From Trichobilharzia regenti (Eukaryota; Platyhelminthes; Trematoda; Strigeidida; Schistosomatidae), in contig OX235263.1 in the NCBI GenBank assembly GCA_944472135.2, positions 88,320,721-88,384,720 on the forward strand: a stretch of DNA of 64,000 nucleotides. The letters are read 5' to 3'. Below are positions 341 through 59,989 of the stretch, in pieces. The position numbers and the translations under genes were made by a program. The notes below the pieces were generated by a model, which did not search any database, had not been told where the DNA came from, and saw only the letters and a list, made by a program, of their open reading frames with translations. Within the stretch, counting starts at the first letter, position 1; the number at the start of each line of letters is the position of its first letter.

Positions 341-378
341 GTTAGTCTTTAGGGGTGTTTCTCATTAATTATTTTTTA

Positions 379-907
379 CAGGATTTCATCATGAACTGAC
401 ATCGGTTAGAGAACCAGTGAAAAACATGCAGGAAGTATTCGACAGTCAACTCTTTCGTCTGCTTAGTTCATAACTCTTCAGAATTATGCACCAGCCGACA
501 CAGTTCGAATCAAGCTAGTTACTTGAGGTCCCACTGGGAAGTCGGGACCACTGAGGTACACTAGGTCGGGTGTTGGGACAAATACTCACCATCGATGACA
601 TTCGATAGTCCCAGTGTCTCACTACGCCATCAGTTGGAAGAAGGTGGAATAGATCAGTTGGTCATTGGATCAGTCGGGTCCCAGTAACCTGATGGTCTAC
701 AAGCTTACCTTGTAATTAGAAGGTCCTGGCTTGGAACCTTGTCAATGAGTGAATGTATAGTGATCATAAAGATTCTCGAACTGGGGAGATGAAACAGCTA
801 GCTGTCCCGTACTCCCTCACAGGTTTTCCAATGGTCTTCTAACCAATGTCAGTTTATTATGAAATCCTGTAACCAATCAATGAGATCCCTATAAACCGAT
901 ACTTGAA
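379..907. mobile_element. Family B' composite SINE, inverted pair, copy 1
   Basis: The left arm is in minus orientation (GGATTTCATCATGAACTGAC onward). The right arm is in plus orientation, with an A-box region near 690, a B-box-like CTTGGAACCTTG near 735, a ribozyme-like segment near 775-815 and the tail ATCCCTATAAACCGATACTT. The internal junction CGAATCAAGCTAGTTACTTG recurs, reverse-complemented, in the copy at 5382-5923. The two are nearly identical over about 520 bp. Confidence 0.8.
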
Positions 908-967
908 CGTATTCGTTTTTAACTCAATTTTGACTTTTCACTTGAGTGACTGAACTCAAGTGTCTGG

Positions 968-1145
968 CTTGTGTTGACATATTGGCTCAAGTGGTCTAGT
1001 GGATAATACTTTGGCGTTTGAAACGATGGGTACTGGGTTCGAGTGATTATGGTAATAACATTACTCACTGGCTGATGAGTTTCAGTTAGGACGAAATGCG
1101 CACATCCTGGATTCCACTGCTAGTCGCCTCTCACCAAACTACTTC
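968..1145 (+). mobile_element. Family A (Sm-alpha-like) SINE, partial
   Basis: The tRNA-derived head has A-box GGCTCAAGTGGTCTAGTGG and B-box GGGTTCGAGTG. It is followed by a hammerhead core, CTGATGA at 1072-1078 and GAAA at 1093-1096, and by CCTGGATTCCACTGC. The 5' strand of stem I (CATCCAG) is missing and stem II is mismatched, so this ribozyme is probably dead. The 3' tail stops shortly after the ribozyme. Confidence 0.8.
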
Positions 1146-1339
1146 AAAATTTTTAATTAATTTGAATGTATATTGATTTGGTCACTTGGATATATCCAGT
1201 GTCGTGAGTGTCTAGATACAGTCAGGTTTACAATGTGTGTTCACCAAGTCACGTGACTTGTAATCGCTATACACTCTGAAATGATGTTAAATGGTTGGAG
1301 ATGTTTTCATTAGGTAGTCATGCACCTAGATTTCGCATT

Positions 1340-2800: not shown

Positions 2801-3088
2801 ACGGGGATCAAATCAATACATAATAGATATACAAGTGTCAGATCAATGCTACTCAATGTAAGAGAAAAACGGATAATGATTACAAAGTTAGCTGAGACAT
2901 TCCAATAAGAATCAATATTATGATCAGATCATTCAGGAGGAATTTTTGAAACAGTTGTTCCTTTAATTGAATTTTAGATTTCCCCGTCAATTGATTGGAC
3001 CGAAGTGCTCGGTCTCAGGTTGAAATGTCGGCTTCTTGAGCAGATGCTTCGGGCTTTTAATTAGTATTTAATTGATGGATGGTGACTA

Positions 3089-3152
3089 GCAGTGGAGTCC
3101 AGGTTAACGCACATTTCGTCCTACTTGGGACTCGTCAGATGGATGTACCTGC
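3089..3152 (-). ncRNA. Hammerhead ribozyme, family A, left arm
   Basis: The reverse complement reads GCAGGTACATCC, core CTGACGA, stem II GTCC-loop-GGAC, GAAA, and CTGGACTCCACTGC. The core is intact. The stem III closing base is changed (AAC instead of ATC before the cleavage site), and stem I has one mismatch next to the core, so activity is doubtful. Confidence 0.75.
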
Positions 3153-3370
3153 ATTTCTTAGTGAGTGATGATGTTCGCACCGAGGCTCGAACCCAGTGCC
3201 CATAATCAATCGATGGGAAAATCTAAAATTCAATTAAATCAATGTGACCTGTTGCACAAGACGTGGCTCTCGTAGCCCAAGTGGTCTAGTGAATAACGCT
3301 TTGGCGTTTGAAACTGAGGGCGCCGGGTTCGAGCCTCGGTGGGAACACCATCACTGACTCACTGGGGAAT

Positions 3371-3437
3371 GCAGGTACATCCGGCTACCGACGAGTCCCA
3401 AATAGCACGAAATATGCTTTATCCTGGATTCCACTGC
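3371..3437 (+). ncRNA. Hammerhead ribozyme remnant, family A, right arm
   Basis: The flanking stem I arms are kept (GCAGGTACATCC / CTGGATTCCACTGC). The core reads GGCTACCGACGAG, a 3-nt-longer variant of the canonical form, and stem II is GTCC/GCAC with one mismatch. It is probably inactive. Confidence 0.7.
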
Positions 3438-3459
3438 TAGTCACCATCCACCACTTAAG

Positions 3460-4400: not shown

Positions 4401-4419
4401 CTGTTCTATCGGTCTGTGA

Positions 4420-5368: not shown

Positions 5369-5936
5369 ATTATTGATTTTTTAGTATTAGTTTATAGGGA
5401 TCTCATTGACTGGTTACAGGATTCCATCATCAGTTGATATCGGTTAAAGGACCATTGCAAAACCACCACGGAGTAATGGACAGCTAGCTGTTTCATCTCC
5501 CCAGTTCAGGAATCTTCATTATCACTATATACTCATTCACTGATAAGGTTGGAAGCCAGAACCTTCTAATTACAAGCCTAGTCAGCTTGTAGGCCATCAG
5601 GTTACTGGGACCCGACTGATCCAATGACCAACTGATGTATTCCACCTTCTTCCAACTGATGGCGTAGTGAGACACTGGGACTATCGAATGTCATCGATGG
5701 TGAGTATTTGTCCCAACACCCGACCTAGTGTACCTCAGTGGTCCCGACTTCCCAGTGGGACCTCAAGTAACTAGCTTGATTCGAACTGTGTCGGCTGGTG
5801 CATAATTCTGAAGAGTTATGAACTAGGCAGACGAAAGAGTTGACTGTCGAATACTTCCTGCATGTTTTCCACTGGTTCTCTAACCGATGTCAATTCATGC
5901 TGAATTCCTGTAACAAATTATTGATTATTGATTTTT
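5369..5936. mobile_element. Family B' composite SINE, inverted pair with 13-bp TSD, copy 2
   Basis: The insertion spans 5382-5923 and is bounded by the direct repeat ATTATTGATTTTT at 5369-5381 and 5924-5936. Internally it is the reverse complement of the composite at 379-907, including the same arm junction. The arms are head-to-head, with tail sequence at both outer ends and the tRNA-like head in the middle. Because a target duplication encloses the whole composite, it was inserted as one unit. Confidence 0.85.
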
Positions 5937-7699: not shown

Positions 7700-8417
7700 A
7701 TAGAGGGATTAAGACCATGAAAGTTAGACTGGTTGAACGAACTTTTTCTGCACACAGAGATCTGGCTTTTCTGTTTCGATAGCCAAAGATGGCTTCAGCA
7801 ATACAGATGAGTCGGGTACGTAGCGATTAGGGTAAATTACTCTTTGCCTCTTAGATGACTTTAAAGGCAGAGACTATAGAAATAAGGTGATCATTATCGA
7901 CCAGATGTTCAATGATCGCGTTTCTTATTGCTCCACTTCCACCTCTTCGTAACCATGCAGGATAGTGTTCTTGCACTCTCTTAGACAAAACTCGAGTTGA
8001 ACGACCAATATACCTAGCTCCCCACAAGCAGGTGAATTGATAAACACACATAGAGTTGGTCAACAGTAGGATCTTGTCCTTCAGATTATTGAACAGTAAT
8101 GGTCGGCTAGTAAAGGCTATTCTCAGAGATGCAGCAAGGAATGTTCTTTCCAGGGACTGTGATATTCTTCGTTTCATGATATAGGAAGCTGAGTTCCCTT
8201 TGAATTCCAAGCTTGTGTAAAGTATTTTCTTAGGTACGGTTGATAAGTCACGTTTCAAAGGATTTGAATGTATATTCTTATCTATAAAACGTGGTGGAAA
8301 TCCATTTTCTATTAGGATTTTTCTCCAAAATGTATAACTCATCTCCCACAGTATCAGGGCTACGTATGCTCCGAATACGAGTAGCAGGAGACCGGACCAG
8401 GTTTCATTTTCGACCAA
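7700..8417 (-). pseudogene. PLE-1 connector and GIY-YIG endonuclease
   Basis: The frame 8417-7851 (188 codons) has the connector LIENGFPPRFIDKNI, then a GIY-YIG domain at about residues 122-185: CVYQFTCLWGARYIGRSTR, then LSKRVQEHYPAWL and IIEHLVDNDH. After a stop at 7851 the family's conserved end is still readable in another frame to about 7700 (RTRLICIAEAI, PDLCVQKKFVQP). In PLEs this nuclease makes the target nick for reverse transcription. The usual second half of the motif (Y-I-G) is intact, but a stop and frameshift remove the C-terminus. It overlaps the RT frame by 14 bases in a different frame. Confidence 0.85.
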
Positions 8418-8853
8418 TGGGTACCCAGCTGTAGAAATTTGTCAGTTGGCCATTCCATGACAGCTTTCGATAAATCGATCTCTTCAGAGTTCCATCGGTC
8501 CTCCTTGATAAGTTCACATCGAGGAAATGAATGCTAGACTCATTCTCCATTTCGAGCGTGAATGTTATCTCAGGATGGCAGCCATTAAATACATTTAATA
8601 TATTATTCAAGTTATAATCACTATTACAAATAATAAAGGTGTCATCTACATACCTTTTATACATTTGAAAGCTTTGGATTATAGGCTTCAGCTGACCATT
8701 TTCTAGACAGGACATAAAACATTCTGCAAGGAGAGGACCCAAGGGAGAACCCATTGCAATACCATCCTTCTGTCTGTAGATTGTTTCATTGAAAGCACAC
8801 TGTACACTCAATGTACATCGATAGCCACAACGCGGAGTGCAACAAACACACAT
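8404..8853 (-). pseudogene. PLE-1 reverse transcriptase, C-terminal half
   Basis: 149 codons. The order is ETIYRQKDGIAMGSPLGPLL (the RT motif containing GSPLGP), then KRYVDDTFIICNS (catalytic YVDD, both Asp kept), then FTLEMENESSIHFLDVNLSR and DGTLKRSIYRK. These are in the order and spacing of PLE reverse transcriptases. The N-terminal fingers and motif A are absent. A frameshift separates it from the connector and endonuclease frame. It is a broken copy. Confidence 0.88.
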
Positions 8854-8944
8854 ACGATAAAAGCAAAGATGGAAGCCCTAATGTTGACATTTGAGATTTT
8901 ACTGTGTGTCTCAAACAATAATTGGGACATTTTTAAAAATTATT

Positions 8945-14125: not shown

Positions 14126-14715
14126 TAACTGTCTAATTAACAAACTAACTAACTTACTTACTTATTTACCTACTTGCTAACTAACTAACCATGAACTAAC
14201 TAACTGACTGACTAACTAACTGACTGACTAACTAACTAACTTACTTATATAATTACTTACTAATTAATTAATTAACTAACTAACTTATTTACTTACTTAG
14301 TAACTAACTAATTAACTAACTAACTAACTAACTTACTTACTTACGTATTTACTTACTAACTAACTAACCAACTAACTAACTAACGATGAACTAACCAACA
14401 AACTAACTAACTAAGTAACTAACTAACTAACTAACTGACTGACTAACTAACTAACTTACTTTTATACTTACTTACTAATTAATTAGCTAACTGACTTATT
14501 TACTTACTTCGTAACTAACTAATTAACTAACTGACTAACTAACTAACTAACCTACTTACTTATAAACTTACTTACTAACTAACCAACAAACAAACTAACT
14601 AACTAAGTAACTGACTAACTAACTAAGTTACTTACTAACTAAATAACTTACTTACTTACGTATTTACCTACTAACTAACTAAACTAACTAACTAACTAAC
14701 TGACTGACTGACTAA
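14126..14715. repeat. Long tetranucleotide array (CTAA/CTTA)
   Basis: About 590 bp made almost wholly of AACT, TTAC, CTGA and CTTA tetramers in alternating blocks. The blocks switch between purine-rich (AACTAACTAAC) and pyrimidine-rich (TTACTTACTTA) phases many times. No gene. This is a cryptic satellite or microsatellite. Confidence 0.9.
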
Positions 14716-14899
14716 ATAACCAATAGAGTCAATGAGAATCACAATATGCCTTGTCCATTCAATAGTTACAATAAGGAAATAAACAAAATTTGTGACAATA
14801 ATAATCATGATAATAAAATTAACATTTGTTCGATGTCCAAAACTGAGATTTTGGACAACATTTGATGAAGGATTACACAAGCTTGTTTGAATTATATTC

Positions 14900-16180: not shown

Positions 16181-16219
16181 TATATATATATAGTTATATA
16201 ACTACTTCTTAAATGCACA

Positions 16220-16717
16220 ATGAATGTTCATTTTGTCTACAACAGTTCATACTATAGACAAGTAGATGGAGTAGCTATGGGTTCACCATTAGGCCCAATA
16301 TTAGCTGACTTCTTTCTCGCAAAACTTGAACACGGGGAACTAAAAGACAACATCAAGGAGTTTGATATGTATTACCGATATGTCCATGATATAGTTATCT
16401 TAGCTGATGGGAATGTTGACATAGACGGATTGTTGCTGAAATTCAACAACATCCATCCTTCGCTTACCTTTACATGTGAAGAGGTGCAGGAGAATAAACT
16501 ACATTTTCTGTATGTCTTGTTAAGTAGGAGAGAAGATGGGTCACTTGGGAGAAGCATGGATAGAAAAAGCACATTCACAGGGCAATACACACACTTCCTT
16601 AGTTACGTGCCCATTAAATATAAAAGGAATATTGTTAAATGTCCTGAGAGCATAGCAAGAAGATACGCACGGTTGACCCCATACAAAAGGAATTTGAATA
16701 TATTCACGATTCCTTGA
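16220..16717 (+). pseudogene. PLE-2 reverse transcriptase half, catalytic Asp changed
   Basis: 165 codons. YYRQVDGVAMGSPLGPILAD is followed by YRYVHDIVILADG, where the first Asp of the YVDD box is His. Then come LTFTCEEVQENKLHFLYVLL, REDGSLGRSMDRKSTFTG and VPIKYKRNIVKC. The metal-binding Asp loss means no polymerase activity even if the frame were complete. It ends at a stop just before the connector, which continues in another frame. Confidence 0.87.
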
Positions 16718-17279
16718 CGGAGATGGGTTATCCGAGTAGTTTCATAAAGAAACATATAAAGACACCAGAGAAAAAACCTGAGATTCTGACTGCACGTAAG
16801 AAACCTCTATTTATTAATTTACAATTTAATGGTGACTTATCAAGTGAGATTCTATTCCAAAGACTTTCAAGGAGTATACGTAGAACATTTTGCGCAGCAC
16901 ACCTATGTTTGTCATTTTCTAGCCGATGAATGATTGGGGCGCAAACCAAGCATAAGCTTGATAGTTTTGCCACATCTATGTGCATTTATCAGTTCAACTG
17001 CACCTGCGGTGACAGTTATGTCGGGCGTACTACTGGACAGCTTAGCCAACATGCCACTATTGAACATCTTCCATCGTGGCTTGGCAAGGGACAGACAAAA
17101 CAATCTGTAGCTCAATTTTGTCACATTTAGTCGATAGTGGTCATGTAGTGGAGAAGACGAGAGCTATCAAGGTAATTCATCGTGTCCCACCGAATATTTC
17201 CAATAGACTTCATATTCGTCTACTGCACACAGCTGAGGCGATAGGCATTCGAGCTATTCAACGTAAACTATGCACCTAA
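16714..17279 (+). pseudogene. PLE-2 connector and GIY-YIG endonuclease, broken
   Basis: The connector frame reads LTEMGYPSSFIKKHI, then PLFINLQFNGDLSSEI. After an in-frame stop the nuclease domain follows: SMCIYQFNCTCGDSYVGRTT, then PSWLGKGQTKQS. A frameshift near 17090 moves the remainder to the frame 17076-17279 (HLVDSGHVVEKTRAIKVIHR, HTAEAIGIRAI). The GIY-YIG tyrosines and the CxC knuckle are preserved. The breaks make it non-functional. Confidence 0.85.
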
Positions 17280-21840: not shown

Positions 21841-21887
21841 GACAAGCATCAGCATTTAATTTGTAGATGGTGACTAGCAGTGGAATC

Positions 21888-21954
21888 TAGGATAACGCGC
21901 ATTTTGTCCTATTTGGGACTCGTAGTCAGCTGGATGTGCCTGCATTTCTCAGTG
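21888..21954 (-). ncRNA. Hammerhead remnant, left arm
   Basis: The minus strand reads GCAGGCACATCCAGCTGACT, then ACGAGTCCC, GGAC, then AAAA in place of GAAA. The core is lengthened by three bases and G12 is lost. Stem I is well kept. Confidence 0.65.
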
Positions 21955-22194
21955 AATGATGATGTTCACACTGGAGCTCGAACCCAATGCCCATAGTTTC
22001 AAACGCCAGCTGAAGCGTTATCCACTAGACCACTTGGGTGACGAGAGCCACTTCTTGTGCAATGGGTCCTATTGATTTAATTGAATTTGAGATTTTCCCG
22101 TCGACTGATTGGACCGAAGTGCTCGGTCTCAGGTTGACATGTCAGCTTCTGGGTTCGAGTTTCGGTGGGAACATCATCCTTCGCTGAGAAATGC

Positions 22195-22261
22195 AGGTAC
22201 ATTCAGCTATCAACGAGTCCCAAATAGGACGAAATGCGCATTATCCTGGATTCCACTGCTA
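22195..22261 (+). ncRNA. Hammerhead remnant, right arm
   Basis: GCAGGTACATTCAGC, a variant core TATCAACGAG, GTCC/GGAC, GAAA, and ATCCTGGATTCCACTGC. Stem II, GAAA and the cleavage-side strand are intact. The 5' core carries the three-base expansion. Confidence 0.7.
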
Positions 22262-22411
22262 GTCTTCATCCACCAATTATATACTAATTAAATGTCCAGA
22301 CATCGTCAAAGCACCTGCACAAGAAGCCGACGGTCATGTAAGCCTGAGACCGAGCACTTCGGTCCAGTTAATCCACGGGAAAATCTAAAATTCAATTAAG
22401 ACAAGCATCAG

Positions 22412-27145: not shown

Positions 27146-27545
27146 AACTTATTGATTAACAGTTGTCTTCGCTCAATACTCAAGACCGAATGGCCTGCCA
27201 GAAAAGATCAGCAATAGGGATCTCTGGCAATGAGCGAACCAACCAGGAACCGATTGTGAAACAAATAGGCAGGAAGAAATGGAGATGGATTGGCTGGCCA
27301 TACGCTGAGGAAACCATCAAGTGACATCACACTCCAAGCCATGGCTCGAGTGGAACCCAAAAGGGAAGCGGTGAGTTGGTCGTCAATGGGAGGGTGACTT
27401 GGAGGAGGTCATGTGAAGAGGGGATGAAAGCATGTGAGCAGACTTGAAGCCAGGTAAAAACTTTAGCAGAGAACCGAACGCAGTGTGGGCTTGGGAGGCT
27501 GAAGCCCTATGTTCCTCTAGGAATTAAAGGATATAATAATAATTA
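27145..27545 (+). pseudogene. RTE-type LINE 3' end
   Basis: Frameshifted but close to 32130-32510: LINSCLRSILK, GHTLRKPSSDITLQA. The tail GAAGCCCTATGTTCCTC, then TTAAAGGATATAATAAT is present. Small insertions (for example TGGCTGG for TTGG) break the frame repeatedly. Confidence 0.8.
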
Positions 27546-29349: not shown

Positions 29350-29674
29350 ACAATTAGAAGTATTGGTTTTGTAGGGATTTTTTTTGATTGAACGGAGGAT
29401 TTCACCATCAGCTGACATCAGTTAGAGAACCACTGGAAAAACTGCCAGAGAGTACTGGACAGCCGTTTCGTCCTAGTTTGGGACGCACCCACCAACAGAG
29501 TTCCAACCCAGGACCTTCTGGTTACAAGGCGATCGCGCTCGTAGACCATTGAGGCACTGGAACCCGATCCACTAGTCGTTGAATTCTAACTTCTGCCAAT
29601 TCAGGACATAGCCTGACCACTTCACAACGTCTTTTTCTTTGATGAGTTACTGCCTCATCTTCAACAATTAGAAG
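29350..29674 (-). mobile_element. Family B SINE monomer, minus, 11-bp TSD
   Basis: The TSD ACAATTAGAAG lies at 29350-29360 and 29664-29674. Inside, minus strand: 5' block (GATGAGGCAGTAACTCATC), A-box, B-box, ribozyme region lacking its 5' core (GGTGCGTCCCAAACTAGG), GAAAC and tail. It is a simple single-unit retroposition and a useful contrast with the inverted copies. Confidence 0.85.
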
Positions 29675-29918: not shown

Positions 29919-30002
29919 AGAAACTGGTCCAACCAGCCAGTACTACTGCCTTGGCTTGCCTTCGGTGAAGATTATAAATTCATGAATTCTGTTTTATTAT
30001 TT

Positions 30003-30410
30003 GTTTGTTTGATTGCATGGAGGATGAAAATTAATCTGATGCTCACTAGCGACTGGCCTTAATCAGGCAGTTAACTTGGGGTTCTAATGGGAAGCCATGA
30101 CCAGTAGGGTACAGCAGGTTGAAGATGAGGCAGAAAATCATCGAAGAAGACATTGCGAAATGGTCACGCCATGTCGTGAATAGGCAGAAGTTAGAATTCA
30201 AGGACCATGGGATCTGGTCCCAGTAGCTCAGTGGTCTACGAGCTCGCCTTGTAACCAGAAGGTCCTCGGTTCGAACCCCTGTGGTAGGTGAGTACTGTTG
30301 ATGAGTTCCAAACTAGGAAGAAACAGCTGTTCAGTACTCCCAGGTTTTCCAGTGGTCCTCTAACTGATGTCAGCTCATGATGAAATCCTCTATGCAATCT
30401 ATTTATCTGT
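30003..30410 (+). mobile_element. Family B SINE with short inverted 5' tail
   Basis: It starts with an inverted scrap of the tail (TGATTGCATGGAGGAT) and then a full plus unit: ATTAATCTGATGCTCACTAG 5' block, A-box (AGTAGCTCAGTGGTCTACG), B-box (GGTTCGAACCCC), ribozyme at 30292-30337 and tail ATCCTCTATGCAATC. The outer ends are complementary to each other. Confidence 0.8.
30292..30337 (+). ncRNA. Hammerhead, family B type
   Basis: Stem I GTACTG/CAGTAC is perfect. The core TTGATGA differs from CTGATGA only at C3. Stem II TTCC/GGAA, GAAA, and stem III ACAGCTGT follow, with U at the cleavage position. The C3 change should impair activity. Confidence 0.65.
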
Positions 30411-30774
30411 CTTAAAATAATTTACGTTCGCATCACCACTGAGGTTAATATTCTCTGGCTGGTCATTGTTCTTTATTACCTCGAAAGACCAACTCTTGAG
30501 TCTGACTGATTGCATATGTATCTTTCAATTTACTAGCACATCAAGCTATTCAAGTCGTTTGATGCGACTTGATAGAATAATATCCTACCTGGATGCGTAG
30601 TGACAACAGTAGATCGATTATGAAAGCGGAATAATTGAGAATCTTTTCACTGCTGAACACTAAGTTCCAAAAGATGCCGTATTCATGGTCACTTATCACC
30701 GAGATCCTAGCTGTCTACATGGATAAGACAATGTGGAGATTATAAATTCATGAATTCTGTTTTATTATTTTATC

Positions 30775-31179: not shown

Positions 31180-31604
31180 TCTCATTCTGCGAAACCATTT
31201 GTATTTACTTTACTTAAATTCAAAAACGGAAATAAATATTTGAAGGGAAATACGAATGATACGGTATCCTTTGACGTCACAGCATTATATACCTCAATTG
31301 GACAGAAACTAGTAAAAGAGGCCATGGAGCAGTTACTAGTCAGAAACGACGAACACCTCCCACAACAATCAAAAATGCAACACACAAGTTGAATGGAGTG
31401 CATAAACCTATTCTTAACAACATACTTCCAATTCAACCGCAAAATATATGAACAAATTAAAAGAATATACATAGGATAGCCTGTATCAGATTTGATTGCA
31501 GAAGCAGTGATGCATTGGCTCGAAAAGATTATTCTACCAAAGATCAAACCCAAAATTTGGATACGTTACGTAGATGACACATTTGTAATAATCAAAAGAA
31601 ATGA
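31180..31604 (+). pseudogene. PLE-6 reverse transcriptase, N-terminal and catalytic part
   Basis: Plus frames read GNTNDTVSFDVTALYTSIGQ (motif A, Asp kept), then after a stop FLTTYFQFNRKIYEQIKR and LPKIKPKIWIRYVDDTFVII (catalytic YVDD intact). The expected GSPxGP loop is degenerate (IGxPVSDLIAEAVM). The RTE insertion falls three to four residues after the YVDD block. A few stops also mark decay before or after insertion. Confidence 0.82.
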
Positions 31605-32523
31605 TTGCAATTGATTGGATAATGCGACAGACAACGGCAACCAACGAGGGAACAGGCATAAAATGGACTGACACAAAAGACTTGGAGGATCTGGATTTCG
31701 CCGATGATATATGTCTGATTTCCCATAAACTGGAAGATATGCAAGTGAAAAGTAACAAGTTGGCAGAAGAAGCATCAAAGATAGGACTTCACGTGAACAT
31801 AGATAAAACAGAGATAATGAAGATTCCTAGCCAACATCAACAACAACAACAGACCACAATAAGCATAAATGGGAAGAACCTGAAAGAAACAACCTCCTTC
31901 ACCTACCTGGGAAGCATCGTCTCAACTACAGGCGGAACTGACGAGGACATCAAAGCCAGAATCGGAAAAGCAAGACAAGCTTTCATTACTCTCAAATCTG
32001 TGTGGAGGTCAACAGCAATCAGCATCAAAAATAAGATCCGGACTTTCAACTCCAATGTGAAGTCAGTCAGTGCTACTATACGGATCAGAGACTTGGCGAG
32101 TCATAAAGAGCATCTCAAACAAACTTCAAACCTTCATTAACAACTGTCTCCGCTCAATACTCAAGATCAGATGGCCAGAAAAGATCAGCAACAGGGATCT
32201 CTGGGAGCGAACCAATCAGGAACCGATTGTGAAACAAATAGGCAGAAAGAAATGGAGATGGATTGGCCATACGCTGAGGAAACCATCAAGTGACATCACT
32301 AGACAAGCCCTCGAGTGGAACCGGAAAGGGAGGCGGCGAGTTGGTCGTCCAAGGGTGACTTGGAGGAGGTCATGCGAGGAGGAGATGAAAGCATGTGGAC
32401 AGACCTGGAGCAGGTTGAAAAAGTTGTCAGAAAACCGAAGTCAATGGAGGTGCGCAGCTGAAGCCCTATGTTCCGCTAGGAACTAAAGGATACAATAATA
32501 ATAAATAATAATAAAAGAAATGA
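31594..32523 (+). mobile_element. RTE-type LINE insertion with 11-bp TSD
   Basis: The TSD AAAAGAAATGA lies at 31594-31604 and 32513-32523. The insert is 908 bp, 5'-truncated in the RT domain, and ends in GAAGCCCTATGTTCCGC, then AAAGGATACAATAATAAT. It is the best-preserved RTE in the window and probably the youngest. Confidence 0.9.
31601..32486 (+). pseudogene. RTE reverse transcriptase C-terminal half and 3' domain
   Basis: Frame 1 (31601-32140) reads EDLDFADDICLISHKLED (catalytic FADD), then GLHVNIDKTEIMKIPSQ and TTSFTYLGSIVSTTGGTDED, then RQAFITLKSVWRSTAIS. After a one-base shift near 32070, frame 2 (32070-32486) reads MLLYGSETWRVIKS, then WERTNQEPIVKQIGRKKWRW, HTLRKPSSDITRQAL and RRRVGRPRVTWRRSCEEEM. 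Only one frameshift separates the two. The N-terminal endonuclease and first RT motifs are missing through 5' truncation. Confidence 0.88.
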
Positions 32524-34040: not shown

Positions 34041-34109
34041 GCTATTATATTTTTATTATTATTTAAGCATCTTTAATGACCTTAATTCCATTGATCTTAT
34101 CTGACAAAT

Positions 34110-34262
34110 CGATCGTACTGGTGAAGAGTCTCAAACTAGGACGAAACAGTTGTCCAGTACTCCCTGGCAGGTGGTTTTCCAATGGTTCTCTAACCGATAT
34201 CAGCTCATGATTAAATCCTCCATGCAATCAAACAAAAATCCCTACAAACCAATACTTGAAAA
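34110..34262 (+). mobile_element. Family B SINE 3' half
   Basis: Starts in the ribozyme (GTACTGGTGAAGAGTCTC, GGACGAAACAG, GTCCAGTAC) and runs to a complete tail CCCTACAAACCAATACTTGA. The first core base is changed, while stem I, II and III are kept. Confidence 0.75.
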
Positions 34263-34394
34263 TCGATATTATTGAAAAAAGACTAAGATTGTTAATGACT
34301 ACTATTCTAGAATATTCTATGTATATAAACTAATGTATATATAACTGTAGCACCAGAAGAGGAATTTATCGAAAGAGGGATATTCTTTGCTTAA

Positions 34395-34695
34395 TTACTT
34401 TGTTTGCATGGAGGATTTAATCATGAGCTGACATCAGTTAGAGAACCACTGTAAAAACTCCAGAGAGTACTGGACAGCTGTTTCGTCCTAGTTTGGGACT
34501 CTTCATCAGTACGCACCTACTGGGCTCATCTTGTAACCAGACGGTCCTGGGTTGGAACTCTGTTGGTGGGTGCGTCCCAAACTAGGACGAAACAGCTGTC
34601 CAGTACTCCCAGGTTTTCCAGTGGTTCTCTAACTGATGTCAGCTCATGATTAAATCCTGCATGCAATCAAACAAAATCCCTACAAATCCAATACT
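34395..34695. mobile_element. Family B SINE, inverted head-to-head pair
   Basis: The minus arm (34395-34515) runs from tail through a complete ribozyme. The plus arm (34515-34695) has CTTGTAACCAGACGG, a B-box-like GGTTGGAACTC, a ribozyme lacking its 5' core, and the tail ATCCCTACAAATCCAATACT. The outer ends are complementary over about 100 bp. Confidence 0.8.
34467..34512 (-). ncRNA. Hammerhead, family B, near-complete fold
   Basis: Minus strand: stem I GTACTG/CAGTAC 6 of 6 pairs, core ATGAAGA (matches CTGANGA except C3), stem II GTCC/GGAC 4 of 4, GAAA, stem III ACAGCTGT, C at the cleavage site. Everything but C3 fits a type I hammerhead. Confidence 0.7.
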
Positions 34696-35082
34696 TGATA
34701 ATTATTTTGTGTTTTATAAAATACAGCTTATCAATCAGTTAAATGTGTAAGTGGCTTATAATATTAGACTTTCAGCCTTTATGATCATGTATGCTGTGTT
34801 AATTATTCAGACACTTTACTGTCTTAATCTCAAATGCGAAGAAAATGCGATGGTATTTGACTGACAACAGATTGCTTTGCTATTTTTATTACCGTTATAA
34901 CACTCCACAGGATTTTCATGTGAGTAAACAATTTTCACTGAATGTTTTCCACTAGGAGTATCGTCTTTCTAATATATTGGGAAGAAGTGTTTACACTTCA
35001 AGAAAGCGTCAATGTGTGTAAGACTTCGAAAGTGCTCCTCATTACTAAAGTGTTGGTTCACCCCAAAATCCGGTATCATTAT

Positions 35083-35689
35083 GAAGTGATATACTTTTCA
35101 GGTATTGATTTTATAGGGATTTTATTTGATTGACTGGAGCATGGATGGGTGGATGCATGTTGTTGAAGAGTCCTAAATTCGGCTGACGAAACAACTAGCT
35201 GTCCAGTAGTCCCCGGTGGTTTTCCAATGGTTCTCTAACTGATATCACTCCAATAAACAATCAAAGTTCCCAACAAAACCAATACTTGAAAATTGATCTG
35301 ATGCTCATTGGTGACTTGTATTGGGTTCTAGTGGGAAGCTGTGATCAGTATGGTACAGTAGGTTGAAAGTGAGGACAGTTATTCATCGAAGAAGAAGTCA
35401 TTGCGAAATAGTCGCACTATGTCATGAATTAGCAGGAGTTGAAATATATGAACTGGCCATTAAATCCTTTGGATCGGGCTCCAGTGGCTTAATGGTCTAC
35501 GAGATCACTAGCCTTGTAAACAGAATGTTCTGGGTTCGAACCCATCGGTGTGGGTGCGTACTGATGAAGAGTCCCAAACTGGGTAGATGTGACAGTTAGC
35601 TGTCCAGTACTTTCTGACAGGTTTTCAAATGGCCCTCTAACTGATGTCAGTTCATGATTAAAAATCCTTCAGCCAATCGAAGTGATATA
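35083..35689 (+). mobile_element. Family B SINE, 1.4-unit tandem with inverted cap, 11-bp TSD
   Basis: The TSD GAAGTGATATA lies at 35083-35093 and 35679-35689. Inside, in order: an inverted tail piece (35098-35148), a unit starting at its ribozyme and running to the tail (35155-35291), then a full unit from 5' block to tail (35292-35678). The junction is CCAATACTTGAAAATTGATC. One TSD surrounds all of it. Confidence 0.85.
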
Positions 35690-36915: not shown

Positions 36916-37012
36916 TGTTACTTCGTAGACATAATTATCATTTCCATAATATAAAATTATTAAAAAATTTTTTTTGTCGATACGCGGTATTAAGACAGTA
37001 AGTTTTTTGGAA

Positions 37013-37615
37013 ATTAATTGGTCAACGGCGACTAGCAGTGGGATCCAGGATAACGCGCACTTCGTCGGTGACTGGACCCACCTACCTATATTCCCCAGTG
37101 AGTCAATGATGGTGTTTCCACCGAGGCTAGAACCTAGTTCCCATATTTTCAAACGCCAAAGCGTTATCCACTAGACCACTTGGGTTACGACAGCCACTGC
37201 CTCTTGTTAAACGTGTCTTAATAATTATTTAATTCCATTTAGTTTTTCCCGTCGATTGATTGGACCGAAGTGCTCGGCCTTAGGTTGACATGTTGGCTAC
37301 CATGGCCCAAGTTGTCTAGTGGATGATGCTTTTGCGTTTGAATCTATGGCTGCTGGGTTCGAGCCTTGGTGCGAACACCATCACTGACTAATTGGGGAAT
37401 GTAGGTAGGTACACCCAGCCACCGACGAGTTCCAAACAGGACGAAATTCGCGTTATCCTGGATTCCACTGCTAGCTAACATCCACCAAATAACTTCTAAT
37501 TACACGCTCAGATATCGTTGGAGCACCTTCATAAGAAGCCGACAGACATTTCAGCCTAAGACCAAGAACTTCTGTCGAATCAATCGATGAGCAAATCTAA
37601 AATTGAATTAAATAA
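37013..37615. mobile_element. Family A SINE inverted composite
   Basis: The left arm (37013-37310) is minus: ribozyme with stem II deleted, B-box, A-box, unit junction (CACTGCCTCTTGTTAAACG) and tail. The right arm (37311-37615) is plus from the A-box (GGCCCAAGTTGTCTAGTGG) through ribozyme and tail. It has the same layout as 21841-22411. No clear TSD was found. Confidence 0.75.
37408..37477 (+). ncRNA. Hammerhead variant, family A
   Basis: GGTACACCCAGCCACCGACG, AGTTCC/GGAC, GAAA, TATCCTGGATTCCACTGC. The 5' core has the ACC expansion seen at 3371 and 50086. It is otherwise well conserved. Confidence 0.65.
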
Positions 37616-37639
37616 ATAAGTGTTTACGTCATTGAAATA

Positions 37640-38990: not shown

Positions 38991-39024
38991 AATGGGAATT
39001 TTTTAATGAATATATAGAATAGAT

Positions 39025-39288
39025 TTGTTCACGAGTTGACGTAAGTTTGAAAACCACTGGAAAATCTAGGATTTACTGGACAGCTGTTTTGTTCATTTGA
39101 TCGGATCCCAGTGGTTGATTGGTCTCTGAACTGGCCTTGAAATCAGAATATCCTAGATTCGAACCCTAGAAGTGAGTGTGTCCTGATGAAGAGTCTCTAA
39201 CTAGGATGAAACGGCTATCCGATAGTTCTCTCTAACTGATGTCAACTAGTGGTCAAAACTGTAACCAATCAAGTCCCTGAAAACTAAC
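39025..39288. mobile_element. Family B SINE, inverted pair with short left arm
   Basis: A minus scrap (39025-39095, GAAAACCACTGG, TTTACTGGACAGCTGTTTTG) is joined head-to-head to a plus unit with A-box (CAGTGGTTGATTGGTC), B-box (GATTCGAACCC), ribozyme (CCTGATGAAGAGTCTC, GGATGAAAC) and a partial tail. Confidence 0.7.
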
Positions 39289-40145: not shown

Positions 40146-40550
40146 AATGTACATGAGACCGAGCACTTCGGTCCAATCAATCGACGGGAAAATCAAAAAT
40201 TCAATTCAATAATAATATGACCCGTTGCACAAGAGGCAGTGGCTCTCGTCGCCCAAGTGGTCTAGTGAATAACGCATTGGCGTTTGAAACTATGGGTACT
40301 GGGTTCGAGCCTCGGTGGGAACGTGATCACTCACTGAGAAATGCAGGTACATCCAACTGACGAGTCCCAAATAGGACGAAATGCGCTTTATCCTGGATTC
40401 CACTGCTAGTCAGCATCCACCAATTAAATACTAACTAACAGCCCAGACATCGTCGAAGCATCTGCACAATAAGCCGACATGTCAACCTGAGAGCGAGCAC
40501 TTCGGTCCAAACAATCGACAGGAAAATCAAAAATTCTATTCAATGTACAT
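40146..40550 (+). mobile_element. Family A SINE, 1.2-unit permuted insertion, 9-bp TSD
   Basis: The TSD AATGTACAT lies at 40146-40154 and 40542-40550. The insert begins within the tail (GAGACCGAGCACTTCGGTCC), crosses the unit junction (GACCCGTTGCACAAGAGG), then reads the complete unit (A-box, B-box, ribozyme, tail) and passes the same GAGCACTTCGGTCC block again about 335 bp later. The template therefore held more than one unit. Confidence 0.9.
40343..40406 (+). ncRNA. Hammerhead ribozyme, family A, most intact copy
   Basis: Core CTGACGA (40357-40363), stem II GTCC/GGAC (40364-40367/40374-40377) and GAAA (40378-40381). Stem I pairs ATCCA with TGGAT plus outer GCAG/CTGC, with one mismatch next to the core. 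Predicted cleavage is after ATC, between 40392 and 40393. It is the only copy in the window with every core base canonical and stem II perfect. Confidence 0.85.
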
Positions 40551-41020: not shown

Positions 41021-41589
41021 AAAACAGTATATTGCATGGAGGATTTCATCATGAGCTGACATCAGCTAGAGAACCACCGAAAAACCCGGGAGTACTGGAC
41101 AGATATTTCGTCCTAGTGTGAGACTCTTCATCAGTCCGCACACATACTGAGGGTTTCGAACCCAGGACCTTCTGGTTACAAGGCGAGCTTGCAAACCCCT
41201 GAGCTACTGGGACCTGGGGTTTTAGTGGGATGCCGTGACTAGTAGGAGACAGCAGGTTGAAGGTGAGTTGGTAACTCATCGAAGAAGACATTGTGAAATG
41301 GTCAGACTACGTCCTGTTTCGGCAGAAGTTGGAATTCAAAGACAATTAAATCGGGTCCCAGTAGCTCAATGGTCTACGAGCTCGCTAGCATTGTAACCAG
41401 AAGGTTCTGGATTCGAACCCATCGGTGTGGGTGAGTACTGATGAAGCAACCCAAACTAGGCTGACAAAACATCTGTCCAGTACTCCCAAGTGGTTTTTCA
41501 GTGGTCCTCTAACTGATGGCAGCTCATGATGAAATCCTGTAACCAATCAACTAAATCCCTGCAAAAACCATTACTTGAAAAACAGTATA
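41021..41589. mobile_element. Family B SINE, complete inverted pair with 11-bp TSD
   Basis: The TSD AAAACAGTATA lies at 41021-41031 and 41579-41589. The minus arm (41032-41215) has tail, ribozyme, B-box (GGGTTTCGAACCC) and A-box. The plus arm (41216-41578) starts in the 5' block (GGGGTTTTAGTGGGATGCCG) and continues through A-box, B-box, ribozyme and tail. One TSD surrounds both arms. Confidence 0.9.
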
Positions 41590-41791: not shown

Positions 41792-42218
41792 AATGAACAA
41801 ATCAAGTATTGATTGGTAGGGATGTGGTTGATTAGTTACAGGATTTCACCATGAGCTGACATTGGTTGGAGGGCCATTGGAAAACCTGCTATAGAGAACT
41901 GGACAGCTGTTTCGTCGGCCTAGTTTGAGACTCTTCAGTAGTACGTACCCACACCGAAGGGTCCAAACCCATGTCTTTCTGGTTAAAGGGTGAGCCCGTA
42001 GGCCATCGGATTGGGTGTCAGTGGCTTAATGGTCTACGAGATCGCAAGCCTTGTAACCAGAATGTCCTGGGTTCGAATCCCGGTGGGTGCGTATTGCTGA
42101 AGAGTTACAAACTAGGCAGAGGAGACAGCTAGCTGTCCAGTACTTTCTGGCAGGTTTTCCAATGGTTCTCTAAACAATGTCAGCTCATGAGGAAATCCTA
42201 TAACCAATGAACTAATCA
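41792..42218. mobile_element. Family B SINE inverted pair, 13-bp TSD with one mismatch
   Basis: AATGAACAAATCA (41792-41804) and AATGAACTAATCA (42206-42218). The minus arm (41805-42003) runs from tail to the head region. The plus arm (42004-42205) starts at the A-box (TCAGTGGCTTAATGGTCTAC) and runs through B-box (GGTTCGAATCCC) and ribozyme to the tail. Confidence 0.85.
41896..41944 (-). ncRNA. Hammerhead, family B, intact CTGAAGA and GAAA
   Basis: Minus strand: core CTGAAGA (41932-41938), GAAA (41910-41913), stem III ACAGCTGT and C at the cleavage site (41902). Stem II is GTC/GAC with a large loop. Stem I is partial (ACT/AGT). It shows that the ancestral family B core had C3. Confidence 0.65.
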
Positions 42219-48950: not shown

Positions 48951-49055
48951 TCCACGGTGTGTGTGATTTTCCTGTCGATTGATTGGACTGAAGTGTTTGG
49001 TCTCAGGTTGACAAGTCTGTCAGTTTCTTGTGCAGGTGCTTTGATGATATCTGGG

Positions 49056-49863
49056 CATGTATTATTATTGTTGTTATTATTAGTTTCCTTTAATTCCTAG
49101 AGGAACATAGGGCTTCAGCCGCTCGCGTCGATTGCATTTGGTTCTCTGCTGACGTTTTCACCTGGCTCCAAGTCTACCCACATGACTTCCTCCAAGTTAA
49201 CCTTGCACTGACGACCAACTTGCCGCTTCCCTTTTGGGTTCCACTCTAGGGCTTGTCTAGTGATGTCACTTGGTGGTTTCTTCAGCGTATGGCCAATCCA
49301 TCTCGATTTCTATCTGCCTATTTGTTGCACAGTCGGTTCCTGCTAGGTTGGCTTCCTCCCAGAGATCCCTGTTACTGATCTTTTCTGACAGGCCATTTGA
49401 TCTTAAGTAGTATTGAGCGAAAATAGCTGTTGATGAAGGTCTGTAGTTTGTTTGAGGTGCTCTTTATGACGCACCAATTCTGTGATTCGTATAATAAGTA
49501 GCACTGACTTCACATTGGAGGTGAAAATCCGGATCTTATTTTCATTTTCATTGGGAGTGCTGTTGACCTCGACACAGAATTGAAAGTGATGAAAGCCTGT
49601 CTTGCCCTCCCAATTCTTGCTTTGATATCCTCGTCAGTTCCGCCTGTAGTTGAAACGATGCTTCCCAGGTAGGTAAAGGAGGTTGTTTCTTTCAGGTTCC
49701 TCCCATTTATGCTGATTGTTGTATGTTGTTGTTGCTGTTGTTAGGGTTGTCCAGAAATATTCATCACCTCTGTTTTCTCTATGTTCACCTGAAGTCCTAT
49801 CTTCTCTGGATGCTTCTTCTGCCAACTTGCAAATCTTCAAGTTTGTGGGAAATAAGACATGTA
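49056..49863 (-). mobile_element. RTE-type LINE inside the family A composite
   Basis: The target string CATGTA is repeated at 49056-49061 and 49858-49863, a short TSD. Minus strand: HRENRGD, INGRNLKETTSFTYLGSIV-like blocks near 49840-49650, and the tail AAGCCCTATGTTCCTCTAGG at 49080-49110. 5'-truncated, many frameshifts. Confidence 0.8.
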
Positions 49864-50085
49864 ATTAGAAGTTAATTGGTGGATGGTGACTAGCAGTGAA
49901 ACCCAGGGTAATGCGCATTTTGTACTGCTTTGGACTGGTCAGCGAGAACATCATCTCAAGAGGCAGCGGCTTTCGTAGCCCAATTGGTCTTGTAGATATT
50001 GTTTTGGCGTTTGAAACTATAGAATCTGGGTTTGAGCCTCGGTGGGAACACTATTACTGAATCACTGGGGAATTAAGGCAAGTGC

Positions 50086-50150
50086 GTCCAGCCACCGACG
50101 AGTCACAAATAGGAGGAAATTCGCGTTATCGTGGATTCCACTGCTAGTCA
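50086..50150 (+). ncRNA. Hammerhead variant, family A
   Basis: CGTCCAGCCACCGACGAG, a damaged stem II (GTCAC/GGAGG), GAAA and GTGGATTCCACTGC. It shares the ACC expansion with 3371 and 37408. Confidence 0.6.
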
Positions 50151-50179
50151 TCATCAGTCAGTTAACTTCTGCTGTAGAA

Positions 50180-50300
50180 TTAAGTATGTAAGTTATACCA
50201 GAAGGATACTGTCTAGACGTGTTTTTATGAACACTTACGAGTATGATTTTTCAAGGGACTGAGTAGAACAGCCAACAGCTCAATACTAGACAACAGTATA
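50180..50300 (+). pseudogene. PLE GIY-YIG scrap
   Basis: YVSYTRRILSRRVFMNTYEY, then VEQPTAQY. This parallels MLVGRNSRIFSRCAHEHLPA and GTVNR in the copy at 58555. About 110 bp only. Confidence 0.6.
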
Positions 50301-51225: not shown

Positions 51226-51473
51226 TGATAGAGGTTTGTGCCGATAACAGGCCAAACTCTAAAGAGTTATTTGCTAAGCTACTGGGCATTTATTCTTTAA
51301 AAGATGCAATAATGAAAACCAATATCCAAAATCATTTCCTCAAAAGGGCCTATCTATTATCTTATATTCATCTGAATTTCAAAAACACCATCTCAAGTTC
51401 ACATACTGAATGGTGCAGTAACACTATCAGTTCTGATACTCAAGTATACGTTTCTACGGATTTGACTGACTGA
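51226..51473 (+). other. Unassigned open frame
   Basis: An in-frame stretch of about 80 codons after the LINE tail: EVCADNRPNSKELFAKLLG, then IQNHFLKRAYLLSYIHLNF and TEWCSNTISS. Composition is less skewed than most spurious frames here. No domain recognised and no splice context judged. It may be an exon, a piece of an unknown element, or chance. Confidence 0.25.
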
Positions 51474-51477
51474 TTGA

Positions 51478-51597
51478 TTACAGGATTTCATCATGAGCTG
51501 ACATCGGTTACAGGACTATTGGAAAACCACCTGGGAGTATCGGGCAGCTAGCTGTTTCGTCACAGCTCATGATGAAATCCTCTATGCAATTAAAGCT
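51478..51597. mobile_element. Family B SINE, ribozyme-to-tail hairpin
   Basis: The minus arm, from tail (GATTACAGGATTTCATCATG) to TAGCTGTTTCGTCA, is joined directly to plus CAGCTCATGATGAAATCCTC. The head is absent, leaving a near-palindromic remnant. Confidence 0.7.
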
Positions 51598-52811: not shown

Positions 52812-53261
52812 CCTTTCATTTTAATTGCATGGAGGATTTCATCATGAGCTGACATCAGTTAGAGAACCATTAGAAGACCTGCCAGGCGGTACTGGATAGC
52901 TGTTTCGTCAGCCTAGTGTGGGACCCTTCAGCAGCACGCACCCACCACAGGGGTTCGAACCCAGGACCTTCTAGTTACAAGGCAAGCTCGTAGACCATTG
53001 AGCCAATGGGACCTGATCCAATGGTCCTTGAATTCTAACTTCTGCCAATTCACGACATAGCGTGACCATTTCGCAATGTCTTCTTCGATGAGTTACTGCC
53101 TCATCTTCAACCTGCTCTACCCTACCGGTCCCGGCTTCCTACTAGAACCCCAGGTTAACTGCCTGAATAGGGCCAATTACTAGTGAGCATCAGATTAATT
53201 TTCAAGTATTTCATAATGAAATCCTTCATGCAATCAAACACAAAATCCCTTTCATTTTAAT
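52812..53261 (-). mobile_element. Family B SINE, full unit with inverted cap, 14-bp TSD
   Basis: The TSD CCTTTCATTTTAAT lies at 52812-52825 and 53248-53261. It is a minus full unit (tail, ribozyme with core CTGAAGG, B-box GGGTTCGAACCCC, A-box, 5' block), preceded in minus direction by a previous unit's AATACTTGAAA and an inverted tail scrap (53205-53247). It mirrors the copy at 30003-30410. Confidence 0.88.
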
Positions 53262-59347: not shown

Positions 59348-59989
59348 AAAAAAATGTTTAAGTATTAGTTTGTAGGGATTTGGTTAATTGTTTACAGGAT
59401 TTCATCATGACCTGACAGTGGTTAGAGAACCATTGGAAAACCTGGCAGGAAGTACTGGACATCTGTTTCGTCCTTGTTTGGGACTCTTCATCAATACGTA
59501 CCCACCACAGGCGTTCGAACCCAGAACCTTCTGGTTACAAGACGAGCTAGTGGATATGTATATATGTATAGTTCAACTCGACAATATCAGGACTTGAATC
59601 TCAATGAAATGCTCACTAGTGACTAGCCCTATTCAGGTAGGTAGTTACCTGGGGTTCTAGTGAGAAGTCGTGACCAGTAGGGTACAGCAGGTCGGGTGTG
59701 AGGACAAATACTTGCCGAAGACATTGGCTAGCGGTTGAGCTATATCATGAATTGGAAGAAGTTAGAATTCATGGGCCATTGGATCGAGTCCCAGTGGCTT
59801 AATGGTCTACGAGATCGCTAACCTTGTAACCAGAAGGTCCTGGGTTCGAACCCCTGTAGTTGGTGCGTACTGCCGAAGAGTCCCAAACTAGAGCGAAACA
59901 GCTATCTGTCCAGTACTTCCAGGTGGTTTTCAAATGGTTCTCCAAGCGATGTCAGTTCACGATGAAATCCTGTAACCAAAAAAATGTTT
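59348..59989. mobile_element. Family B SINE, inverted pair with 12-bp TSD
   Basis: The TSD AAAAAAATGTTT lies at 59348-59359 and 59978-59989. The minus arm (59360-59552) has tail, ribozyme and B-box. A 50-bp spacer (59553-59602) follows. The plus full unit (59603-59977) has 5' block, A-box, B-box GGTTCGAACCCC, ribozyme with core CCGAAGA, and tail to TGTAACC. The A-rich TSD fits LINE-type endonuclease targets. Confidence 0.88.

What the first reader, a model, noticed from the sequence alone, without database searches (positions are those of the whole stretch)
21841..22411. Inverted head-to-head SINE pairs inserted as single units
Opposed arms of one SINE family lie inside a single target-site duplication at 5369-5936 (13 bp), 21841-22411 (12 bp), 41021-41589 (11 bp), 41792-42218 (13 bp, one mismatch) and 59348-59989 (12 bp). 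Further inverted pairs without a clear TSD lie at 75-340, 379-907, 2962-3457, 9285-9590, 34395-34695, 36265-36915, 37013-37615, 48960-50165 and 51478-51597. Both outer ends are usually 3' tail sequence and the tRNA heads meet in the middle. Twin priming during target-primed reverse transcription inverts the 5' part of an RNA, and on a template of two or more units it would give exactly this layout.
Basis: partly seen in the sequence, partly recalled or inferred. Interest (0 to 1): 0.88.

Follow-up and report, generated by a model that had tools for sequence, protein, structure and literature searches.

The report
Mirror-image insertions of ribozyme-bearing retroelements
Short mobile elements that carry a self-cutting RNA enzyme often sit in this blood-fluke genome as mirror-image pairs inserted in one event, and their two ends mostly fall at two fixed sites, matching the mark of an unusual copying machine (Penelope-type) that was suspected but not shown to move such elements.

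Summary
The five pairs with target-site duplications (TSDs) are exact, one more was missed (52812-53261, 14-bp TSD), and the layout recurs elsewhere in the genome.

The "SINEs" are hammerhead-ribozyme retroelements (two families, 332- and 404-bp units), probably in an avian schistosome. Copies end at a short (S) or a long (L) 3' site. In most scorable head-to-head pairs one arm ends at S and the other at L: 10 of 12 by an automatic rule in the window, 9 of 10 in 200 kb sampled elsewhere. In family B the sites lie 27-31 nt apart in AC-rich sequence, 68-101 nt past the ribozyme cut.

This matches Penelope-like elements (PLEs): an optional 30-40-nt "tail" on one of two inverted terminal repeats, and in vitro an enzyme that extends both target strands from two adjacent internal RNA sites. 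PLE remnants are common here.

Best reading: PLE-type two-ended target-primed reverse transcription of hammerhead RNAs. L1-style twin priming on one homogeneous RNA fails for three of nine typed pairs, whose arms come from different subfamilies. No sequence shared with a PLE was found, and family A's sites are ~114 nt apart.

The parts
21841..21852 (.). left TSD GACAAGCATCAG of the A pair
   Evidence: exact 12-bp repeat with 22400-22411
21848..22148 (-). family A arm ending at S (with part of the previous unit at its inner end)
   Evidence: 90% to A consensus; hammerhead at 21885-21935
22151..22399 (+). family A arm ending at L; junction 22148-22150
   Evidence: 89% to A consensus; hammerhead at 22201-22251
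22400..22411 (.). right TSD
5369..5936 (.). B pair: (-) arm L end, (+) arm S end, 13-bp exact TSD
34392..34710 (.). B pair: (-) arm S, (+) arm L; 12-bp TSD, 1 mismatch; arms of different subfamilies (13-nt deletion only in the + arm)
36999..37625 (.). A pair: (-) arm S, (+) arm L; 9-bp repeat with 1 mismatch, not above chance
41021..41589 (.). B pair: (-) arm S (tail type II), (+) arm L (tail type I); 11-bp TSD
41792..42218 (.). B pair: (-) arm L, (+) arm S; 13-bp TSD, 1 mismatch
52812..53261 (.).
59348..59989 (.). B pair: (-) arm L, (+) arm S; 12-bp TSD
2955..3458 (.). A pair: (-) arm L, (+) arm S; no clear TSD
910..1148 (.). old A pair: (-) arm L, (+) arm S (by hand; not paired by the automatic rule)
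35097..35681 (.). B pair: short (-) arm L, long (+) arm (1.3 units) S; no clear TSD (by hand)
39022..39287 (.). old B pair: S and L-like ends by hand, S/S by the automatic rule
48964..50183 (.). A pair whose left arm is split by a later insertion: L and S ends by hand, S/S by the automatic rule, which saw only the inner piece
51436..51592 (.). B pair: (-) arm L (type I), short (+) arm of ~30 nt S (type II)
376..907 (.). B pair: S and L; reverse-complement relative of 5369-5936 with the same junction
29988..30414 (.). B pair with very short (-) arm (end between S and L) and full-length (+) arm S; 9-bp repeat not above chance
40146..40550 (+). single full-length A copy with ~57-bp direct terminal repeat, L end, 9-bp TSD AATGTACAT
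29350..29674 (-). single B copy, L end, 11-bp TSD
34106..34267 (+). single B copy, L end, 8-bp TSD (weak)
7719..8877 (-). PLE remnant: reverse transcriptase (8404-8877) and GIY-YIG-like part (7851-8441) in different frames

Best explanation
The pairs are single insertions of non-autonomous hammerhead retroelements (like metazoan retrozymes and schistosome SMalpha) made by Penelope-like (PLE) machinery. Proposed steps: (1) RNA of more than one unit, or circular RNA, is bound by a PLE RT/endonuclease, probably a dimer. (2) The endonuclease makes a staggered cut in AT-rich DNA, giving TSDs mostly of 11-19 bp. (3) BOTH target 3' ends prime reverse transcription at fixed internal sites of the RNA: one arm starts at L, the other at S. 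(4) The two cDNAs run toward the RNA 5' end, stop at variable places and are joined head to head at 0-8 nt of microhomology. One RNA may serve both arms in many cases, but some insertions used RNAs of two subfamilies. Shown here: anatomy, the S and L sites, their split between arms, variable junctions, TSDs, PLE remnants. Taken from published in vitro work on another PLE: two-strand extension and two start sites. Inferred: that a PLE moves these families, the dimer, and the RNA form.
For: Hammerheads: 10 of 10 above-threshold Rfam hits in the window lie in A/B copies. Ends: in five B pairs (5369, 34392, 41021, 41792, 59348) S = 371-374 and L = 400-404 of the unit (the 5369 S end was taken at the alignment end, 5918, where the longer 19-bp repeat begins). 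The S-L stretch of B is 81% A+C against 49% for the unit. S/L split: automatic rule, 10 of 12 scorable of 15 window pairs, 2 S/S, 0 L/L. Nearly the same rule on 20 x 10 kb elsewhere: 9 of 10 scorable of 17 pairs, 1 L/L; the A 'L' bin was 37-70 there against 37-66, which changed no pair. Together 19 of 22, P about 4e-4 at one half by arithmetic; 18 of 21, P about 7e-4, without the copy 376. By hand (not blind) 13 of 13 window pairs. Independence: nine window pairs have nine different junctions, the tenth (376) repeats that of 5369; 18 distinct junctions among 20 loci chosen by similarity, 9 of 20 with exact TSDs of 11-19 bp. TSDs are 79% AT against 62% (P 5e-5, 11 TSDs). PLE: RT and GIY-YIG-like pieces match one T. 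szidati protein; PLE tblastn hits in 11 of 20 sampled stretches; one local PLE has direct terminal repeats. Literature on PLE inverted repeats, tail, two start sites and two-strand extension.
Against: In vitro no difference in start site between top and bottom strand was seen, whereas here S and L are split between the arms. Family A's S-L distance is ~114 nt, far above the 30-40-nt PLE tail. No shared sequence between A/B and a PLE of this genome was found: alignments of one local PLE terminal repeat to A/B were weak. 9255 may be S/S, 39022 and 49862 score S/S automatically, L029 is L/L, and 52812 and 29988 have one end between S and L. In the unselected sample only 3 of 17 pairs keep an exact TSD of 12-14 bp. 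The B tail shows no stable stem-loop (z 0.59). The GIY-YIG assignment rests on motif, a UniRef name and a weak profile hit; Pfam gave none and the fold model failed (pLDDT 35). Mobilisation by a PLE is not shown experimentally.
Confidence: 0.75

Rival explanations
1. L1-style twin priming by LINE machinery on one tandem SINE RNA: the first target end primes at the RNA 3' end, the second anneals inside the same RNA.
For: Single TSD, one arm inverted, 0-8 nt ambiguity at the junction. In 35097, 52812 and 29988 one arm is short and begins near S, as if its synthesis ran into a second RT on the same RNA. At diagnostic sites the arms of 21841 fit one template (LLR +1.86).
Against: The second priming point is fixed (S) rather than scattered. 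Arms are of different subfamilies in 34392, 41021 and 51440. Two-armed insertions dominate: 8 of the 11 insertions anchored by a TSD, or 6 of the 7 with the strongest TSDs (score 10 or more). No poly(A) or simple-repeat tail beyond S or L, apart from an A7 that is part of the 59348 TSD. A tandem heterodimer RNA could rescue part of this: 35148-35690 is itself a heterotypic tandem.
Confidence: 0.12
2. Self-priming (fold-back) of one cDNA or of an antisense template, as suggested for rotifer PLEs, giving palindromic junctions.
For: Head-to-head layout; proposed for Adineta PLEs.
Against: The arms would be copies of one molecule, but they differ by 13-47% in 13 pairs compared, heterotypically in three. 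A fold-back does not predict different S and L outer ends. Junctions are not palindromes: arm 5' ends differ by tens to hundreds of nt in unit coordinates.
Confidence: 0.07
3. The inverted pair is itself the mobile unit: copies of one or a few composite masters.
For: 376-907 and 5369-5936 share junction and a 275-bp tract with two mismatches. All 40 scored places (10408 candidates, the window's own included) match the 21841 pair over most of its length, some only partly. Two junction values occur twice among the 20 loci.
Against: Junctions otherwise differ: nine different in the window, 18 distinct of 20 selected loci, and the TSDs found are unrelated. 376/5369 looks like local conversion, since identity falls to ~85% outside the tract.
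Confidence: 0.05
4. Chance neighbours, separate insertions or assembly artefact.
For: High copy number in this genome.
Against: Head-to-head, tail-to-tail, direct = 15:1:0 and 17:0:2 against 1:1:2 expected; single TSDs; arms 13-47% diverged, unlike assembly inversions.
Confidence: 0.01

Closest known systems
Metazoan non-LTR retrozymes (Cervera and de la Pena 2020, PMC7229834; parts 1-3 of 6 and passages read)
   Same: Type I hammerhead, units of ~170-400 nt, GC below 50%, units crossing a tandem junction, TSDs longer than 4 bp
   Different: No long tandem arrays among the copies typed in the window; many inverted pairs. Those authors call PLEs a strong candidate, and their 2020 review (PMC7761336, passages) says that metazoan retrozymes show no conserved motif pointing to the autonomous partner
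SMalpha/Sjalpha hammerhead SINE-like elements of Schistosoma (passages of PMC8490949)
   Same: Hammerhead type I; the SMalpha-like W36.2_W001 is 335 bp against 332 bp for A; schistosomatid host; the A ribozyme resembles SMalpha as I recall it
   Different: No SMalpha sequence was held, so identity was not tested. I saw no report of inverted pairs in the listings (one search listed nothing)
Penelope-like elements: Adineta Pen2a (PMC3846280, passages) and Anolis Poseidon PAc (PMC11167929, parts 1-3 of 4 read)
   Same: Head-to-head inverted repeats within one TSD; tail of 30-40 nt on one of them; two adjacent RT start sites; AC-rich start region; AT-rich targets; hammerhead upstream
   Different: A and B encode no RT or endonuclease. 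S and L are split between the arms in most scorable pairs, whereas PAc in vitro showed no strand difference. A's two sites are ~114 nt apart
LINE-1 twin priming (recalled)
   Same: Inverted 5' part, single TSD, junction microhomology
   Different: One template, scattered internal priming, a minority of insertions

Membership tests
Metazoan non-LTR retrozyme | Canonical type I hammerhead | tested here: met
   Rfam RF00163, up to 53.6 bits in the window and 67.5 in related pairs (L017)
Metazoan non-LTR retrozyme | Small unit (~170-400 nt), GC < 50% | tested here: met
   332 bp, 47.3%; 404 bp, 48.3%
Metazoan non-LTR retrozyme | Tandem copies (dimers to multimers) | tested here: inconclusive
   Units cross the tandem junction (e.g. 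35148, 40154, 47157), at most ~1.3 units; no long array among the copies typed
Metazoan non-LTR retrozyme | Circular RNA in vivo | not testable with these tools
   no RNA reads
PLE-mobilised element | Two 3' ends about 30-40 nt apart (tail), on one of two inverted arms | tested here: met
   Family B: 371-374 and 400-404, 27-31 nt apart in five pairs, split S/L
PLE-mobilised element | the same, family A | tested here: not met
   two recurrent ends split between the arms, but ~114 nt apart
PLE-mobilised element | Head-to-head inverted repeat within one TSD | tested here: met
PLE-mobilised element | Shared cis sequence with an autonomous PLE of the same genome | tested here: inconclusive
   one PLE (L030) compared; only weak alignments
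PLE-mobilised element | Mobilisation by a PLE protein | not testable with these tools
   needs biochemistry
PLE proper | ORF with RT and GIY-YIG endonuclease | tested here: not met
   A and B units are 332 and 404 bp; the PLE coding matches in the window lie outside the A/B copies
Classical tRNA SINE | RNA whose 5' end is the tRNA-like head | tested here: inconclusive
   The longest arms begin ~100-120 (A) or ~205-220 nt (B) upstream of the tRNA-like box that I placed by motif, in the previous unit's tail; no RNA ends known
SMalpha/Sjalpha | Sequence identity to SMalpha | not tested
   no sequence held; only length and ribozyme type compared

The most novel reading that the evidence does not exclude
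PLE-type integration is an obligate two-ended, two-site event: a dimeric RT loads both target 3' ends at once, one subunit starting at L and the other at S, on one RNA or on two RNAs, so that an inverted pair is the normal product and a 'simple' insertion is one whose second arm aborted. Hammerhead retrozymes, as multimers or circles, are natural substrates of this machine.
Probability: 0.4. Interest if true: 0.8.

Novelty: new variant of a known kind. Interest (0 to 1): 0.62.

Why it matters
Which autonomous element moves animal hammerhead retrozymes was left open in the two 2020 papers: they name PLEs as candidates, and the review says that the repeats carry no telling motif. A two-site end signature, one site per arm, would be such a mark and can be counted in any assembly. 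It also gives in vivo products that match the two-strand, two-start-site chemistry seen with a purified PLE, and it adds a rule not reported in the passages I read: the two sites are divided between the arms. This makes the PLE integration model testable by counting.

Tried and rejected
Composite-master idea: taken seriously after (many near-full-length matches to the pair), then rejected because junctions and TSDs mostly differ.

Single-template test at subfamily-diagnostic sites: the arms of all eight B pairs tested and of A2962 and A37003 disagree more than a low private-mutation rate predicts, A21841 does not; recurrent mutation can inflate this. I therefore rely only on the shared 13-nt deletion (34392) and the tail types (41021, 51440; the 51440 S arm is only ~30 nt). 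A possible link, that pairs whose L arm reaches further 5' than the S arm are the heterotypic ones, rests on very few pairs and is not claimed.

RNA fold of the B tail: z = 0.59. Microhomology of outer ends to the target: 0-4 nt by eye, blurred by TSD boundaries, inconclusive. AlphaFold of the GIY-YIG-like protein: pLDDT 35, discarded. Clostridial-toxin, AbbA, mir-297 and OATP hits are below their cut-offs or weak and were not followed.

Rows set aside before counts: the hand count of 13 excludes 376 (copy of 5369); 49, 20191 and 36256 (one end lost); 9255, 52812 and 29988 (ambiguous). It includes 39022 and 48964, which the automatic rule scores S/S, and 910 and 35097, which it does not pair. 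The 9-bp repeat at 47157 is element sequence and was not used. Of the 11 TSDs in the AT count, those at 36999 and 34106 are weak. The 20 loci were chosen by similarity to an S/L pair and are not used for the S/L count; 7 of them have weaker or no TSDs. The other sample was 20 stretches at regular coordinates: 12 on C1, 7 on C2, 1 on C3.

Full report
What is there. The window (C2:88320721-88384720 of a 954-Mb assembly) carries many copies of two short non-coding families, A (332-bp unit) and B (404-bp unit). Both hold a tRNA-like stretch followed by a type I hammerhead ribozyme: Rfam gives 10 hits above threshold, all 10 inside A/B copies, and 38 in 20 related loci elsewhere, 37 of them inside the pairs. 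Predicted cleavage falls after unit position 237 in A and 303 in B (motif positions, cut placed by the known hammerhead rule). Host: a broken protein piece in the window is 90% identical to a Trichobilharzia szidati protein and 84% to a T. regenti one, so the genome is probably an avian schistosome or close kin (inference).

The pairs. The finding's five TSD-bounded pairs are exact, and 52812-53261 adds an exact 14-bp case. Random places give an exact repeat of 11 bp or more in 9 of 4000 trials; mismatched flanks of these loci reach a score of 9 in 24 of 930 cases and of 6 in 314, so the short repeats at 36999 and 29988 prove nothing. Neighbouring same-family segments are 15 head-to-head, 1 tail-to-tail and 0 direct in the window, and 17, 0 and 2 in 20 regularly spaced 10-kb stretches. 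Of those 17 unselected pairs, 3 keep an exact TSD of 12-14 bp. In 20 genome loci chosen by similarity to the 21841 pair, 9 have an exact TSD of 11-19 bp, 4 more a 13-20-bp TSD with one mismatch, and 7 a weaker one or none; 18 of 20 junctions are distinct. TSDs in the window are AT-rich: 98 of 124 bases in 11 TSDs (P 5e-5).

The new regularity. Most full 3' ends fall at one of two sites. In five B pairs with good TSDs they are at 371-374 (S) and 400-404 (L), 27-31 nt apart. In A they are about 272-285 (S) and 387-396, that is 55-64 of the next unit (L), with one L end cut short at 373. In a pair, one arm mostly ends at S and the other at L. Automatic scoring gives 10 of 12 in the window, with 2 S/S; 3 of 15 pairs were unscorable. 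One S/S case is the inner piece of an arm interrupted by a later insertion whose outer end is L-like (48964); the other (39022) is old. Nearly the same rule on the 200-kb sample gives 9 of 10, with 1 L/L; 7 of 17 were unscorable. Hand-scored window pairs, not blind, are 13 of 13; three are ambiguous (9255, 52812, 29988), three unscorable (49, 20191, 36256), and the copy 376 is left out. The three single insertions with a TSD all end at L (40146, 29350, 34106), which hints that L is the primary site.

Junctions and templates. Inner ends are variable, with 0-8 nt ambiguity at the join; nine window pairs have nine different junctions. The arms of one pair differ by 13-47% in 13 pairs compared. 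In 34392 the (+) arm lacks 13 nt of the ribozyme, a deletion shared with the separate copy 29352, while the (-) arm is intact. In 41021 and 51440 the two arms carry different tail types. So in 3 of the 9 typed B pairs (5369, 34392, 35097, 41021, 41792, 51440, 52812, 59348, 29988) two different source RNAs, or a heteromeric tandem RNA, were used, unless gene conversion changed an arm later. Heteromeric tandems exist: 35148-35690 runs through a type I-like tail into a type II unit. Several arms cross the tandem junction and none of the segments starts or ends at the ribozyme cut, so the template was uncleaved, multimeric or circular; I cannot tell which.

Mechanism. Penelope-like elements have an inverted terminal repeat that completes the insert inside one short TSD, an optional 31-bp tail on one of the inverted repeats, and mostly head-to-head arrangements (PMC3846280, passages). 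A purified Anolis PLE cleaves and extends both target strands, starts reverse transcription at two adjacent internal RNA sites in AC-rich sequence, prefers AT-rich targets, and works on RNA whose hammerhead is disabled; the genomic tail is the stretch between the two start sites (PMC11167929, parts 1-3 of 4). Family B resembles this: two sites ~30 nt apart, 81% A+C between them, 68-101 nt past the ribozyme cut, against ~85-92 nt for the main start in that paper (start at +111 to +118, cut at +26). PLEs are common here: the window holds a remnant whose RT and GIY-YIG-like parts both match one T. szidati protein and several other matches, and 11 of 20 sampled stretches have PLE matches. One PLE (L030) shows direct terminal repeats that stop ~87 nt past a hammerhead-like core that I saw by eye and Rfam did not call. 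I therefore read the pairs as PLE-type two-ended target-primed reverse transcription of hammerhead RNAs.

Limits. No shared sequence between A/B and a PLE was found. Family A's sites are ~114 nt apart. In vitro no strand difference of start sites was seen, so the S/L split needs an explanation, such as an asymmetric dimer or the second start being excluded from the site already in use. The B tail does not fold into a stable stem-loop. The endonuclease assignment rests on motif, a database name and a weak profile; Pfam gave no hit and the fold model failed. No RNA data were available.

Place in what is known. Metazoan retrozymes and the schistosome SMalpha/Sjalpha elements are the nearest relatives of the sequence; PLEs are the nearest relatives of the insertion mode. 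PLE mobilisation of retrozymes was proposed in 2020 as a strong candidate, without a telling motif. In the listings (one search listed nothing) I saw no report of the S/L split or of inverted SMalpha-type pairs; I read only the papers and passages named here, and most subscription papers, including the 1998 SMalpha ribozyme paper, are not in that library.

Noticed in passing
376-907 and 5369-5936: Inverted copies of one pair: 421-695 has two mismatches to the other locus, the outer arms only ~85%; looks like gene conversion between inverted repeats 4.5 kb apart.
   Followed up: partly
7719-8877 (-), 16202-17279 (+), 45059-45856 (-), 54613-55544 (+), 37979-38611 (+): Several remnants of Penelope-like elements.
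   Followed up: partly
L030:6591-9729: PLE with direct terminal repeats (83-100% identical stretches, ~2.9 kb apart) and a hammerhead-like core seen by eye; the scripted search found no TSD.
   Followed up: partly
31592-32513; relatives at 27152-27543, 47719-48173, 49060-49863: LINE-like family (RVT_1 plus DUF6451); one copy split the left arm of the A pair at 48964-50183 with a short CATGTA duplication seen by eye.
   Followed up: partly
35148-35690: Heterotypic tandem: type I-like tail joined directly to a type II B unit, so mixed tandem RNAs or template jumps occur.
   Followed up: no
33215-33311 (-): ARAGORN calls a tRNA-Arg (ACG) inside a B copy that stops just before the hammerhead; the tRNA-like part of B abuts the ribozyme.
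   Followed up: no
L048:2090-2253 and 4298-4461: Inverted repeats (85-96%) on the 5' side of a PLE on the minus strand; possibly an inverted PLE terminal repeat, not analysed further.
   Followed up: no
14126-14723: Degenerate AACT-type simple-repeat array.
   Followed up: no
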